Below are positions 9,489 through 15,544 of a stretch of 64,000 bases of DNA, in pieces; within the stretch, counting starts at the first letter, position 1; each line of letters starts with the position of its first letter. The DNA comes from Moraxella osloensis (lineage in GTDB: Bacteria > Pseudomonadota > Gammaproteobacteria > Pseudomonadales > Moraxellaceae), in the NCBI RefSeq assembly GCF_001553955.1, contig NZ_CP014234.1, positions 124,001-188,000 of the forward strand, in the 5' to 3' direction. A program made the position numbers and the translations under genes. The notes beneath the pieces are model-generated. The model searched no databases, was not told where the DNA came from, and saw only the letters and a program-made list of their open reading frames with translations.

Positions 9489-9682
9489 AAAGACCCGCAC
9501 TCACTATCTGCGCCAAAACCCATTTATCCCATCCACCGACGCTTAACCATAGTATGGTGGGTTTGGCTGGGGTTTCGATTGCTAGCAGTACCGCTATTGA
9601 CGCATTGGTTGGCAAGTGCAAAGCCTGCTATGGTCGGCGGGATTGCTTGGCAAGCTTTGTGGTTGATACCCGCGCTATTATC
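9480..9682 (+). pseudogene. DUF2069 membrane protein gene, 5' part, split by IS66-family insertion
   Basis: The first 67 codons of a small membrane protein resembling DUF2069 (conserved WLGFRLLAVPLL...WQALWLIPALL). The frame runs into the insertion element at 9683 and stops at once. Joining base 9682 to 12400 restores one uninterrupted 140-residue protein, so the break is purely the insertion and looks recent. A truncated peptide of 68 residues could still be made. Function of the family is unknown. In the ancestral layout it followed wrbA directly. Confidence 0.85.
9675..9682. repeat. Left copy of the IS66 target-site duplication
   Basis: The 8-bp sequence CTATTATC immediately before the left end of the element. 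The identical 8 bp follow the right end at 12392-12399. Eight-base duplications are standard for IS66-family transposition. Confidence 0.93.
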
Positions 9683-9763
9683 GTAAGCCCCCGACCATCC
9701 CACCTATTTCACCGTAAACTAAAGCGAGATAATGTCCATGATTTTCAGTAAATGGACATTAAC

Positions 9764-10174
9764 ATGGCAACCAACAAACCCAGACGCAAGACCTACAGTG
9801 ACGAATTCAAAGAATTTCTAGTCCAAGAAGCGATAAGCTCAGGACGGTCTATTGCCAGCATAGCCAGAGACAACGGCATCAACCAGAACCTATTGCACAA
9901 CTGGAAACGAGAACAAAAAGCCAAACAAGCCCAAACCGACCAAATACCCGCACTTATTGACAATGACGCTTACCGCAATACACCAACATTCATCCCTGTC
10001 AGTGTACAGCCAAAACCAAACCGTGAGCAAATCACCGATTTCATCACATCTAGGTCATCAGTCCTGACAGGTATAGAACTACAAATTCCCAGCCACAACA
10101 CAATGCCCATAAAACTCACTATCGACCAAATCGACACACACAGCCTACTCGAACTACTGCGGGGGCTACAATGA
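9764..10174 (+). CDS. tnpA: IS66 accessory protein TnpA (helix-turn-helix)
   Basis: A 136-residue protein with an N-terminal IS3/IS911-like helix-turn-helix (YSDEFKEFLVQEAISSGRS followed by IARDNGINQNLLHNW). It is the first gene of the IS66 three-gene set and is needed with TnpB and TnpC for transposition in characterised members. The frame is open four codons earlier; I start at the ATG at 9764 (MATNKPRRKTYS). Its stop overlaps the tnpB start as ATGA, indicating translational coupling. Confidence 0.88.
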   Translation: MATNKPRRKTYSDEFKEFLVQEAISSGRSIASIARDNGINQNLLHNWKREQKAKQAQTDQIPALIDNDAYRNTPTFIPVSVQPKPNREQITDFITSRSSVLTGIELQIPSHNTMPIKLTIDQIDTHSLLELLRGLQ

Positions 10175-10542
10175 ACCCCCTTATCAACCCCCAACAAATA
10201 TGGCTATCCACCGCTGCCATGGACATGCGAAGTGGCAGTAATAAACTACTCGCCTTCATCCTACAGCACCACCCAGGCATCCGCCCAAACTGTGCCTACC
10301 TATTTTACAACAAAGCAGGCACCCGGCTAAAAATACTCATCCATGACGGCCTGGGCATATGGCTATGCACCCGAGCACTGGATGATGGCAAATTTCACGG
10401 ACTTGGCGAACGCCTCATGCGACATCACAGTGCACCTAACCCAACCACAGGACTCACCATCAGCCATGAACAATTCAATGCCCTGATTAGTGGTTTGCCT
10501 TGGCACAACCTAGGCAAAGACATACTCACCCCTCTGACCTAA
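10171..10542 (+). CDS. tnpB: IS66 accessory protein TnpB
   Basis: A 123-residue protein of the IS66 Orf2 family. Typical features are IWLSTAAMDMRSGSNKLLAF near the N-terminus and GTRLKILIHDGLGIWLCTRAL in the middle. It overlaps tnpA by 4 bases (ATGA). Its exact biochemical role is unknown, but it is required for transposition in characterised IS66 elements. It looks full length. Confidence 0.9.
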   Translation: MNPLINPQQIWLSTAAMDMRSGSNKLLAFILQHHPGIRPNCAYLFYNKAGTRLKILIHDGLGIWLCTRALDDGKFHGLGERLMRHHSAPNPTTGLTISHEQFNALISGLPWHNLGKDILTPLT

Positions 10543-10626
10543 CCTGCCTTTATCATAAAGCCGCTAAATCTCAACTATCACCGCCCGTTAGCTGACAACC
10601 GATAACGGTTATGGCAAACTCATGCC

Positions 10627-12372
10627 ATGACCACCGCCCACCCATCCGACCCAATTGCGCCAAGCTATGCTGATTTATTAGCCCAAAACGCTCGGCTTCA
10701 ACAGCAGCTTGACGCACAAAAACAACATTACCAACAGCAAGCAGCGCAACTCAAACAGCAATACCAACAACAAATGGACGCTCAAAGGCAGCAATACGAA
10801 GCTAAGCTTGCTCGCATCAACCAAGAGCTCATTGACGCCATTGCCAAACAGCAACGTCTTATTCATCGGCTGTTTAGGCAAAAAAGCGAAGGCTTAACGC
10901 CCAAACAAACCCACTTAAACCAAGAAACCGCCCTAGAAGACCTAGCCTTGCTTGAACAAGCCCATGACAACTTCTTAGCCAATCTTAGCGATGACGAGCG
11001 AGCCAAACTGCCTGCTAGCAAGCCGATTAACACACAGAACGATAGCACAGACATTCAATCCAAAAAGCCAACTCAGCCTAGACGACAAAAACGCATCGTT
11101 ATCCCTGACAACCTCGACATTCACACCATCATTCATGAGCCACCGTCAATTACCTGTGAGTGTGGCTGTCAAATGACGCAAATGGGTCAAGATGTTCAAG
11201 ACAAACTTGGCTTTAAGCCAAAGCAGTTCTACCGTGAGCGTCATGTTTATCCCAAATACACCTGCCGTAATGCTCAGTGTCACCGTGAGAAACTGGTGCA
11301 AGCCAAAACCGAGCCTCAAATCATCGACAAAAGCATTGCCACCCCTGAGTTACTCGCTCACATCTTAATCAGTAAATACGCTGACCATCTGCCTTTATAC
11401 CGCCAAAGCCTGATTTATCAGCGTAGTGGGGTATATTTATCCGATTCAACCTTAGCCGATTGGGTCGGACGCTGTGGGGTGCAGCTTAGGTTTTTAGTTA
11501 ATCGATTAATCAAACTCATGCTTATTCAGCCAATTGTGCATGCGGATGAAACCCCAGTCAAAGTATTAAATGGCTATGGGATGAAAGATGCTAAAGGCAA
11601 GTTAAAGCAAGGCTATGTTTGGGCGTATGTGACCCCAAAGCACAGCCCAATCAAGGCGGTGGTGTATGACTTTGCTCAAGGTCGAGGTAGTGAGCATCCC
11701 AATGCGTTTTTAAAAGGCTTTAAGGGTAAGCTTATTTGCGATGGCTATAACGGCTACAAGCCATTATTTGGGCGAGGCGTGATTGAAGTGGGTTGTATGG
11801 CCCATGCCAGACGTAAGTTTCATGAGCTTCATGTGACAGGGCAGAGTCTTATTAGTATTGAGGCACTAGAACTGTTTCAATCGCTGTATGCCGTTGAGTG
11901 TGAGATTGATGAGCGGTTTGAGAAAAACCAAACCCCAATGCCCAGAGATGCCCAAATCGTTAGACAAATCAGGCAACAGAAGGCAAAGCCAATTGCGGAT
12001 AGGCTGTATGCGTGGTTACAACAGAAACGCTTAGGTACAACTAAGAATGCTGATATTACCAAGGCAATTGAGTATTGTTTAAAAAGGTGGCAGGCTCTGA
12101 CACGTTATTTGGATGATGGCAATTTGCCGATTGATAATAATTGGGCAGAGAATCAGATGCGTCCTTGGGCGCTCGGGCGTAAGAATTGGTTGTTCGCAGG
12201 GTCGCTTGAGAGCGGTCAGCGGGCGGCGAATGTTATGTCGCTTGTCCAGTCAGCTAGGCTTAATGGTCTTGACCCCTATGCGTATTTGGCAGATGTGCTT
12301 AGACGGCTGCCGACGCATAAAGATAAGTTCATTGATGATTTGCTACCTCATGTTTGGAAGCCTCCGCAATAG
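10627..12372 (+). CDS. tnpC: IS66 transposase TnpC (DDE type)
   Basis: A 581-residue transposase. Residues ~17-80 form a Gln-rich coiled coil or leucine-zipper region. Residues ~170-220 contain the IS66 zinc-binding domain (CECGCQ ... CRNAQCH). The DDE catalytic triad is visible as D307 in HADETPVKV, D372 in ICDGYNGYK and E508 in NNWAENQMRPWALGR. The length is normal for the larger IS66 members and no frameshift was seen. It is separated from tnpB by 84 bases with no gene. The stop codon lies only about 20 bases from the right end of the element. Confidence 0.93.
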   Translation: MTTAHPSDPIAPSYADLLAQNARLQQQLDAQKQHYQQQAAQLKQQYQQQMDAQRQQYEAKLARINQELIDAIAKQQRLIHRLFRQKSEGLTPKQTHLNQETALEDLALLEQAHDNFLANLSDDERAKLPASKPINTQNDSTDIQSKKPTQPRRQKRIVIPDNLDIHTIIHEPPSITCECGCQMTQMGQDVQDKLGFKPKQFYRERHVYPKYTCRNAQCHREKLVQAKTEPQIIDKSIATPELLAHILISKYADHLPLYRQSLIYQRSGVYLSDSTLADWVGRCGVQLRFLVNRLIKLMLIQPIVHADETPVKVLNGYGMKDAKGKLKQGYVWAYVTPKHSPIKAVVYDFAQGRGSEHPNAFLKGFKGKLICDGYNGYKPLFGRGVIEVGCMAHARRKFHELHVTGQSLISIEALELFQSLYAVECEIDERFEKNQTPMPRDAQIVRQIRQQKAKPIADRLYAWLQQKRLGTTKNADITKAIEYCLKRWQALTRYLDDGNLPIDNNWAENQMRPWALGRKNWLFAGSLESGQRAANVMSLVQSARLNGLDPYAYLADVLRRLPTHKDKFIDDLLPHVWKPPQ

Positions 12373-12391
12373 GGTATGGTCGGATGATTAC

Positions 12392-12399
12392 CTATTATC
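12392..12399. repeat. Right copy of the IS66 target-site duplication
   Basis: CTATTATC directly after the terminal TTAC of the element. It is identical to 9675-9682. Confidence 0.93.
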
Positions 12400-13368: not shown

Positions 13369-13403
13369 TTTTTATTATTTCCCAATTAGTTGATTTTATA
13401 AGT

Positions 13404-14099
13404 TTAAATATTACCTTGATAAAGTAAACGTCTATCACTATCAGAAATCGATGTTAGCACTATATCTCTATAGCTTGGATTAATCTTAAAAATATTATCT
13501 CGAAATGAAAAAACAAGAATTGTAATGTATGTTTTGACAATTTTAATAGTATTTTTAATTAATTCATTTGCATATCGTTCGTCAAATATCGGAATATTTT
13601 TAAAAGCGGATAAATGCATCATATGGTGTTGATTTGCTGTATGAGTGTAAGAACATAAATTACTATATTCCGTATTCAAATTATTATACATAATTAAAAA
13701 ATTAGGATGACTGCAATTAGGATACTGTTTTGCAATATCAAAAATTTCATAAACGTGTTTTTTATTAACTATATCAGTGTCAACAAATAGCCCAATTGCC
13801 TTAATGAAATTCTCAATAGAACTTCTTAAAATCAGATTAGCAGGTTTATATAGCCCATGAGAAAAAAGAAGTATTACCTGACCGATATCAGAACAACTCT
13901 CTAGTAGTCTATTTTCAATATTTTTATCACATATATTTTGATGATTAATACCCCAAATTAAATGAGCATAAGAGAAGTAAATTTTATGTGACTTTTTTAG
14001 ATTAGAAACATATACATCATTTTGAGCTAATGTAGAAATTGAATAGTTTTTTATAAAATCATTTAATCGCTCAAAATCTTTGTCAATTTCTCTACTCAT
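13404..14099 (-). CDS. Uncharacterised helical protein, HEPN/DUF5677-like, third gene of ParA operon
   Basis: A 231-residue protein with no firm family assignment by eye. The open frame extends 13 codons upstream, but the ATG at 14099-14097 overlaps the stop of the preceding gene as ATGA, so I choose it. The chain appears mostly alpha-helical. A pattern seen in DUF5677 and related HEPN-like proteins is present: LYKPANLILRSSIENFIKA (R92 and E96) and later YSNLCSYTHT (Y145, H153). The classical HEPN RNase motif R-x4-6-H is not evident, so ribonuclease activity is only a possibility. The sequence is very AT-rich. Its coupling to the middle gene and to the ParA-type ATPase implies a joint function; I do not recognise a described system. 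Confidence 0.75.
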   Translation of the reverse strand: MSREIDKDFERLNDFIKNYSISTLAQNDVYVSNLKKSHKIYFSYAHLIWGINHQNICDKNIENRLLESCSDIGQVILLFSHGLYKPANLILRSSIENFIKAIGLFVDTDIVNKKHVYEIFDIAKQYPNCSHPNFLIMYNNLNTEYSNLCSYTHTANQHHMMHLSAFKNIPIFDERYANELIKNTIKIVKTYITILVFSFRDNIFKINPSYRDIVLTSISDSDRRLLYQGNI

Positions 14100-14602
14100 A
14101 TTATATTTCCTGAAAGAGAACGAATAACACTGTTCCAATCATATTTTTCAGTTTTATCACTTTTTATTTTTGCTAATATTTTCTCATCATGCATAATTTT
14201 ATCAATTGCATTTACCAACTTATCTAGCGAATTTTCATCCATTTCACTGATTGCACACAACATAGCCCCAATGATTTCATATCTGGATTTTTTGTCTGGA
14301 TTTTTTAGCCTTATACCTAGGAAATCACCAAAGTCAGACAAATCTGAATTCTTTTCAAAAATCTCTCTATCTTGAAAAAATTTTGGTAGTGTACCGACTA
14401 AGTAGTTTTTGTTTGAGTTTTCATGTTTATAACGTGTTAAATTATCAAATGAAGTGCTAAAATCATTTTTTTCTATTAAATACTTATATAAGTCATCTTT
14501 CCTGTTTTTAATATCAATAGAATTATATCTTGACATAATCCAAGAAAGCTCTTCCATAAAATTAAATAGCTCATTAATATCTTTCTTGGTAACATTGCTC
14601 AT
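14096..14602 (-). CDS. Uncharacterised protein, middle gene of ParA operon
   Basis: A 168-residue soluble-looking protein that I do not recognise. It has no signal peptide or membrane segment and is rich in Lys, Asp, Glu and Asn. Predicted helices lie at both ends (DINELFNFMEELSWIMSRY; ENSLDKLVNAIDKIM). Its ATG overlaps the ParA stop by 4 bases and its stop overlaps the next ATG by 4 bases. The operon therefore appears designed for stoichiometric translation of all three products. It is too unlike ParB to be called a ParB: I see no helix-turn-helix or nuclease motif. It could be an adaptor or cargo of the ATPase. That is inference. Confidence 0.72.
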   Translation of the reverse strand: MSNVTKKDINELFNFMEELSWIMSRYNSIDIKNRKDDLYKYLIEKNDFSTSFDNLTRYKHENSNKNYLVGTLPKFFQDREIFEKNSDLSDFGDFLGIRLKNPDKKSRYEIIGAMLCAISEMDENSLDKLVNAIDKIMHDEKILAKIKSDKTEKYDWNSVIRSLSGNII

Positions 14603-15438
14603 GATTTTTCCTGTGATTGAATTCTAGTTAAAATTTCATCAGTTAATTTGACTAATCTTAAACTTAAATCGGTGTCATTTAATGACAAAATATGACCACC
14701 GTTGATTTGGTCTTTCGCGATTTTTGTTTTTTTCGGTATGTGAGTTTTGAAAAGGAGTTCACTCCAATCTGATTTTTGAAGTTCCTCAATAGTTTGTTGA
14801 TGATTCAATGTAGCACCTTCTACTAAATTTAAGGCTACACCTAAACATTTTAAATCTTTCAACCTAAAATTTTTCTTTCTATATTCAATTACACTATTCA
14901 ACAAATTCATGCCAGTTACAGATAAAGGCTCTGGTTTAGAGACAATGATAAAATAATCAGAAGCAATCAAAGAGCTAGACATCCATATTGAAGGAGTAGG
15001 TGGAGTGTCTATTATTATAAAATCAAAATCGTCGTCAATTGTTTCTAAGAAATTTTCTAGCCTAAATTCTCTTCCTTCACCAGGGGACATTTCAACCTGA
15101 TATAATGACAAGTCACCAGGTAATAAGTACAAATTATCATTAATTTTAACAAATTCGAAGCATTCTTTTTGCTCATTATTTGCTGGTTGTATTCCATCCA
15201 CTGAACTAAATGAATATTGTTGCTCATTAAAAACAGATGAAATTGTACTTTTATCAAGTTTTTTATAATTAATGTATTCTTCAGCATCCATTAAGCATTG
15301 AGTAGCATTAAATTGGGGATCCATATCAATTACTAAAACTTTTTTGCTTCTTCTTTCAGCTAGACAATGTGCTAGATTAATTGCTAAAGTAGATTTTCCA
15401 ACACCACCTTTCATATTTACAAAACTTAAAACCTTCAA
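14599..15438 (-). CDS. ParA/MinD-type P-loop ATPase, first gene of three-gene operon
   Basis: A 279-residue ParA-superfamily ATPase. The deviant Walker A box KGGVGKST is at residues 10-17, with the signature lysine at residue 10. The A' region VIDMDPQFNATQ is at about 36-47 and Walker B FIIIDTPPTPS at 140-150. The start is TTG at 15438-15436. It follows AAGGGG by 6 bases and is the only start that keeps the first beta strand before the P-loop. Family members bind ATP as dimers and position plasmids, chromosomes or protein complexes. Here no ParB or parS-like repeats are adjacent, so classical partition is unlikely. Composition is much AT-richer than hrpA and the esterase gene on either side, suggesting transfer. 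The gene is driven by a good promoter at 15516-15544. Confidence 0.88.
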   Translation of the reverse strand: MKVLSFVNMKGGVGKSTLAINLAHCLAERRSKKVLVIDMDPQFNATQCLMDAEEYINYKKLDKSTISSVFNEQQYSFSSVDGIQPANNEQKECFEFVKINDNLYLLPGDLSLYQVEMSPGEGREFRLENFLETIDDDFDFIIIDTPPTPSIWMSSSLIASDYFIIVSKPEPLSVTGMNLLNSVIEYRKKNFRLKDLKCLGVALNLVEGATLNHQQTIEELQKSDWSELLFKTHIPKKTKIAKDQINGGHILSLNDTDLSLRLVKLTDEILTRIQSQEKS

Positions 15439-15515
15439 AGTTTTCCCCTTAAAATAAAATAGTATTTAAAAAATAAAAAAAATCCTAATTTTGTATAAGT
15501 TTAAAATTGCTCTTG

Positions 15516-15544
15516 ATTTTACCTAACTTTTCCCCATTTATCAA
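15516..15544 (-). promoter_or_regulatory. Promoter of the ParA operon
   Basis: On the minus strand: -35 TTGATA (15544-15539), 17-base spacer, -10 TAAAAT (15521-15516). Each hexamer is 5/6 to consensus and the spacing is ideal. Transcription would start about 70 bases before the TTG start codon. Confidence 0.6.

What the first reader, a model, noticed from the sequence alone, without database searches (positions are those of the whole stretch)
13404..15438. Three-gene ParA-type ATPase operon: candidate undescribed system
Seen: an AT-rich island on the minus strand between a carboxylesterase gene and hrpA. It encodes a ParA-superfamily ATPase (KGGVGKST, DTPP), a 168-residue unknown protein and a 231-residue helical protein. 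Both junctions are 4-base ATGA overlaps. A promoter with 5/6 hexamers and 17-base spacing drives it. Established: ParA ATPases need a partner (ParB, MinE-like or cargo adaptor), and no ParB or parS-like cluster is present. Inference: the middle protein may be the ATPase adaptor. The last, with the R-S-S-I-E and Y..LCSYTH pattern, may be a HEPN/DUF5677-type effector. The foreign composition and presence in a core-gene neighbourhood fit a mobile accessory or defence cassette. I know of no described defence system with this gene trio, but I could not search.
Basis: partly seen in the sequence, partly recalled or inferred. Interest (0 to 1): 0.75.

Follow-up and report, generated by a model that had tools for sequence, protein, structure and literature searches.

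The report
ParA–adaptor–HEPN-like prophage defence-like trio
A three-gene cassette, made of a ParA-type ATPase, an unknown helical protein and a likely RNA-cutting HEPN-like protein, recurs as a unit in prophages and defence islands, sits here in a slot where a sister genome carries a known anti-phage system, and looks like an undescribed phage-defence or toxin–antitoxin system.

Summary
In detail: three overlapping minus-strand genes (ParA ATPase 279 aa, 168 aa, 231 aa; GC 28% against 43% for the window) lie between an esterase gene and hrpA. The trio is a conserved unit: 76 of 78 usable viral loci found by ParA alone carry the same three genes in order, and copies occur in E. coli, a Plesiomonas plasmid, a Blautia prophage and phages LF1, Javan1 and PLg-TB25. 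The three proteins' distances co-vary. Of five same-genus relatives, two have esterase and hrpA adjacent and one has PARIS in that slot. In E. coli the trio lies beside type I restriction and DarTG, or in prophages. The commonest typed neighbours in viral loci are integrases and repressors, not ParB. The third protein has invariant R, E and H (53 of 53), placed as in HEPN RNases, but lacks the canonical Rx4-6H. In two viral loci the third gene is missing and an FRG-domain gene precedes ParA plus the middle gene, suggesting exchangeable effectors. Best reading: an undescribed abortive-infection or TA-type defence module. A ParA–HEPN dyad was predicted in 2013, so this is a new variant. Activity is untested.

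The parts
14599..15438 (-). Gene 1: ParA/Soj-type ATPase (279 aa, TTG start), deviant Walker A KGGVGKST, DPQFNAT, DTPP
   Evidence: AAA_31 1.1e-40; phrog_164 1.1e-56
14096..14602 (-). Gene 2: middle protein (168 aa), predicted all-helical; N85 and R107 the most conserved of 54 members; proposed adaptor/regulator
   Evidence: (phrog_12497 1e-22)
13404..14099 (-). Gene 3: HEPN-like/DUF5677-like helical protein (231 aa) with invariant R92, E96, H153; proposed RNase effector
   Evidence: (phrog_12265 9.9e-36)
15516..15544 (-). Promoter-like site TTGATA-17-TAAAAT upstream of ParA (not above chance in this AT-rich stretch)
13372..15531 (.). Accessory slot: stretch not shared with the PARIS-bearing same-genus genome G759; in G758 about 230 bases separate the shared flanks

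Best explanation
The operon is a mobile three-component phage-defence (abortive-infection or superinfection-exclusion) module of toxin-antitoxin type. Shown: a conserved, co-inherited trio; prophage, plasmid and defence-island settings; a PARIS / trio / near-empty polymorphism at this very site; an HEPN-like predicted fold with an invariant R/E/H set; and, in two loci, an FRG-domain protein with ParA plus the middle gene in place of the third gene. Inferred: the ATP-dependent ParA dimer, bound to nucleoid DNA and joined by the middle protein, holds the HEPN-like protein inactive; infection (DNA damage, takeover or degradation of the nucleoid, or a phage product) changes the ParA state, frees or assembles the HEPN-like RNase, and RNA cleavage stops growth before phage release.
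Against: No phage, toxicity or RNase assay exists. The canonical HEPN Rx4-6H motif is missing (R at the right spacing in only 5 of 53). Foldseek found no PDB match at E<=0.001 for the third protein, and HEPN rows in the VIA list are tied in Z with unrelated seven-helix bundles. The middle protein has no useful structural match. In plasmid p11184 the trio follows the rep gene directly, as partition genes do. Two of five same-genus relatives (G755, G757) have other genes beside hrpA, so the slot is not genus-wide. ParA's role as a nucleoid-state sensor is not tested.
Confidence: 0.6

Rival explanations
1. A toxin-antitoxin (addiction) module that stabilises prophages and plasmids, with the HEPN-like toxin and ParA plus the middle protein as antitoxin, without selected anti-phage activity.
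For: Overlapping operon of a predicted RNase and an ATPase; on a small mobilisable plasmid and in prophages; a ParA-HEPN dyad was proposed as TA.
Against: The site swap with PARIS, the placement next to RM/DarTG and the exchange of the third gene for an FRG protein point to conflict with other elements, not only self-maintenance.
Confidence: 0.2
2. A plasmid/prophage partition system: ParA plus the middle protein as centromere-binding partner, with an accessory third protein.
For: ParA family; PHROG and GenBank names 'partition'; trio directly after rep in p11184; a putative partition system (genes not named in the text I read) is reported in about a quarter of P2-like phages (PMC9122126 section 10).
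Against: No ParB hit for the partners and none among the 25 commonest families of the neighbours; no three-copy repeat cluster in four trio loci; chromosomal, integrase-linked settings; third gene exchangeable for FRG.
Confidence: 0.12
3. A lysogeny-control module acting on the prophage's own repressor or integrase.
For: Position between repressor and integrase in LF1 and Javan1 and near such genes in other viral contigs.
Against: Also found outside prophages: this window, the E. coli RM/DarTG island, p11184.
Confidence: 0.06

Closest known systems
MAE_18760-family HEPN + ParA/Soj ATPase dyad (predicted TA, Anantharaman et al. 2013, PMC3710099; passages read)
   Same: ParA/Soj-like ATPase gene paired with an HEPN-type gene; ATPase proposed as antitoxin, HEPN as RNase toxin.
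   Different: Dyad, not trio: no middle gene is described in the passages read; that HEPN family keeps Rx4-6H, the present one does not; direct sequence comparison was not made.
DUF5677 (PF18928)
   Same: R-S-x2-E and Y-x3-S-x3-H signature; the L189 third protein resembles it by eye.
   Different: Below Pfam threshold (16.7 of 27.1 bits); hhalign probability 60.8 over 37 columns only.
PARIS (AriA/AriB)
   Same: ATPase plus effector cassette known from prophages and satellites; occupies the same slot in a sister genome.
   Different: AriA is an ABC-type ATPase and AriB a Toprim-like nuclease (recalled); the trio's proteins gave no AriA/AriB hit in PADLOC.
ParABS / MinD-MinE type systems
   Same: Deviant-Walker ATPase with a small partner protein.
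   Different: No ParB hit, no repeat centromere found, extra HEPN-like or FRG partner.

Membership tests
HEPN superfamily (third protein) | HEPN helical-bundle fold | tested here: inconclusive
HEPN superfamily (third protein) | Rx4-6H motif | tested here: not met
   H153 in 53 of 53, but R 5-7 residues before it in only 5 of 53; an HEPN family lacking this R is described in PMC3710099
HEPN superfamily (third protein) | Second conserved acidic residue, typically E-x3-[KR], in helix 2, with His at the end of helix 3 | tested here: met
   E96 53/53, with [KR]100 49/53; in the model E96 lies in helix 84-106 and H153 ends helix 132-153, which I count as helices 2 and 3 of the 2hsb-aligned range; layout from PMC3710099
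DUF5677 (PF18928) | Pfam gathering score 27.1 bits | tested here: not met
   16.7 bits; 1 of 53 members hits at E<=0.01
ParA superfamily (first protein) | Deviant Walker A KGGxGKT/S and Walker B in an AAA_31 domain | tested here: met
   KGGVGKST, DTPP, AAA_31 139.9 bits against cut-off 27
ParABS partition system | ParB-type partner gene | tested here: not met
   no Pfam/NCBIfam ParB hit at E<=1 for the two partners; none in the 25 commonest families of 144 neighbour ORFs (rarer families not shown)
ParABS partition system | Centromere repeat cluster | tested here: inconclusive
   only two-copy short repeats in four trio loci; single-site parS would be missed
Named defence systems in PADLOC-DB 2.0.0 | Model match for the accessory proteins | tested here: not met
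   no hit at E<=1 for the window's middle and third proteins; ParA hits only candidate PDC-M28B by its P-loop; over 53 third and 54 middle members only single-member hits, best 0.0028 and 0.00054
MAE_18760 HEPN-ParA dyad | HEPN protein of that family | not tested
   no model or sequence of that family was on hand
Anti-phage defence system | Measured protection against phage | not testable with these tools
   needs a bench assay

The most novel reading that the evidence does not exclude
ParA plus the middle protein form a widespread, undescribed immune-sensor core, built on the ParA ATPase cycle on nucleoid DNA, that is fitted with interchangeable effectors: an HEPN-like RNase with a rearranged R/E/H active site (nearly all loci seen) or an FRG-domain protein (possible NADase; two loci). 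It would be a ParA-based innate immune system spread over Gram-negative and Gram-positive prophages and mislabelled as 'partition'.
Probability: 0.4. Interest if true: 0.85.

Novelty: new variant of a known kind. Interest (0 to 1): 0.72.

Why it matters
Genes labelled 'ParA, partition' in temperate phages are usually passed over. If the trio is an immune module, some of those labels hide a phage-versus-phage weapon, ParA joins the ATPases used as immune switches, and the third family adds an HEPN-like active site without the canonical arginine. The FRG exchange makes 'one sensor, several effectors' directly testable.

Tried and rejected
Partition system: considered and kept as a rival (0.12); repeats searched in four loci. 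Known PADLOC system: no match for the accessory proteins. The promoter as evidence: rejected, chance level. Middle protein fold: no useful PDB match by Foldseek, VIA or sequence, so no function is assigned. PDB sequence search with the third family: only chance-level rows (best E 0.22); with DUF5677: none. tblastn of phage records: no match for the window's middle gene, its third gene, the E. coli third (E<=0.01), L033's third (E<=0.001) or the window ParA (E<=1e-25); L030's ParA found 4 records of 3 phages. Viral scan with the single middle protein: none. Genome-contig scan: 1 locus, Blautia An249, from a single peptide pattern, so its low count says little. The genome search with the third family: 2 of 390 genomes of the order and 1 of 369 of the class, own genome included in both.

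Limits: the 80 viral ParA loci were found by the patterns [VI]NMKGGV and DPQFNAT and are the best 80 of 121 confirmed, so F in DPQFNAT (53 of 59 trio ParAs) and the tree's split are partly selected. In the tree 21 rows filled under half of the kept columns (the 12 named are all references), long branches meet, and reference L176 joins the trio side weakly. The positional trio criterion was mine. Over all 92 loci held then, 85 of 87 usable had the trio, but some of those were fetched with the third or middle gene as query and some overlap, so I quote 76 of 78; even those include near-copies (58 distinct third proteins among the 85; 51 after thinning with the window added). I loaded decoy ORFs but did not search them, so there is no false-positive count. 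A7 (53 rows) leaves out L026 (third 185 aa), near-copies such as L006, and L020 and L089. The neighbour set took 40 of 49 loci and 144 of 177 ORFs, and the same ORF can hit several integrase families. A weak FRG-like hit (9.4e-4) also lies 2.4 kb downstream of an intact trio in L056.

Literature: searches showed no description of this trio; one search was poorly worded ('para' matched 'parasite'). The library lacks most subscription papers, and supplementary tables (for example the 169 P2-hotspot systems of PMC9122126) were not seen. Passages only of PMC9519451 and PMC13092281 (the word 'ParA' occurs in neither main text), PMC3710099, PMC7159879 and PMC9503650; passages and section 10 of PMC9122126; all others as listings.

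Full report
1. Observation. The window carries three overlapping minus-strand genes in an AT-rich block between an esterase gene and hrpA: ParA 14599-15438, middle 14096-14602, third 13404-14099; both overlaps are ATGA. GC is 0.280 against 0.432; the 2,035-base stretch starting at 13501 is the lowest of 620. ParA is a clear AAA_31/ParA protein. The middle and third proteins match PHROGs of unknown function (best phrog_12497, 1e-22, and phrog_12265, 9.9e-36) and nothing in PADLOC. The promoter is real as a string but not above chance.

2. It is a conserved unit. tblastn found both accessory proteins together in Plesiomonas plasmid p11184 and in E. coli, and an HMM search found the trio in G075 of the same order. 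A Blautia prophage has the trio between an ImmA-like gene and an integrase-like gene (named from ORF translations). A viral-contig scan with a ParA alignment alone gave 80 loci; 2 end at ParA, and of the other 78, 76 have a second and third gene of the right size in order; L020 lacks the third and L089 has it in two pieces. Among the distinct trios the middle gene is 111-184 aa and the third 185-260 aa. In 10 random half-splits, models of one half recovered 244 of 260 third and 246 of 260 middle proteins of the other at E<1e-3 (no decoy count). Pairwise distances of the three proteins correlate (0.76, 0.87, 0.70; permutation maxima 0.21-0.23; n = 51). In a tree with 30 other ParAs the 59 trio ParAs lie on one side of a 98/99 branch, with the caveats in Tried and rejected. 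Three named phages not used in the models also carry it: Lactobacillus LF1, Streptococcus Javan1, Lactococcus PLg-TB25 (third-protein E-values 2.1e-40, 1.5e-22, 3.5e-32; middle 4.9e-25, 1.8e-30, 1.2e-20).

3. Where it lives. Five same-genus relatives were seen. G758 and G756 have esterase and hrpA adjacent (near-empty slot); G759 (first 473 aa of HrpA 97% identical) has AriA and AriB, the PARIS genes, at the same place and in the same orientation; G755 and G757 have other genes there. E. coli carries the trio in 133 of 5,426 genomes. I opened 9 annotated records: 5 beside type I restriction-modification and DarTG (H5, H12, H20, H37, H38), 1 beside the same GTPase/Ag43 genes without them in the stretch shown (H43), 2 in a lambdoid prophage (H41, H42), 1 in a P2-like prophage between a truncated tail sheath gene and the tail-fibre assembly gene (H44). 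That P2 position is, from recall, the Z/fun accessory site. These records were chosen by me, not at random. Of 144 ORFs next to 40 viral trios, 13 hit each of two integrase families (possibly the same ORFs) and 8 a repressor family; holin and endolysin hits also occur (3 each); ParB was not among the 25 commonest families.

5. The middle protein. Helical (pLDDT 82.5, pTM 0.63), no useful fold match; most conserved are N85 and R107. In L020 and L183 it follows ParA with no third-family hit in the locus (L183 ends about 350 bases past it, in an ImmA-like ORF); an FRG-domain protein (Pfam 2e-21 for L020; L183's similar to it at about 1e-87) precedes ParA. FRG is described as a potential antiviral effector and possible NADase (PMC9503650 passages). 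This exchange suggests that ParA plus the middle protein are the constant core and the third protein the variable effector; it rests on two loci.

6. Mechanism (inferred). ParA dimers bind ATP and DNA; the middle protein joins ParA to the effector; infection changes the ParA-nucleoid state and releases or activates the RNase. The 2013 proposal for a ParA-HEPN dyad made the ATPase the antitoxin; the trio fits that scheme with an added adaptor.

7. Verdict. New variant of a known (predicted) kind; defence function likely but untested.

Noticed in passing
9682-12395: IS66-type transposase genes (9752-12372; named by eye from the ORFs) split a small membrane-protein gene that is whole in sister genome G759 (L124:5545-6006); the flanks overlap by 5 bases in L124 and 8 in L125, as expected of a target duplication.
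   Followed up: partly
1-2935: A second low-GC stretch at the start of the window (2,035-base windows under 0.34 starting at 1 to 901).
   Followed up: no
L124:6777-8715: PARIS (AriA + AriB) in the esterase-hrpA slot of a same-genus genome: this slot looks like a small defence hotspot.
   Followed up: partly
L020:1330-3426 and L183:4114-6301: FRG-domain gene + ParA + middle gene without the HEPN-like third gene; L183 also has a 431-aa endonuclease-like ORF upstream and an ImmA-like ORF downstream (both named by eye).
   Followed up: partly
L001:3664-4482: The ParA of plasmid p11184 is broken into two frames in the deposited sequence, while the middle and third genes are intact.
   Followed up: no
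L189:6449-7186: A diverged third protein with R-T-A-L-E and Y-x3-S-x3-H, missed by the family model, that looks like a bridge to DUF5677.
   Followed up: no
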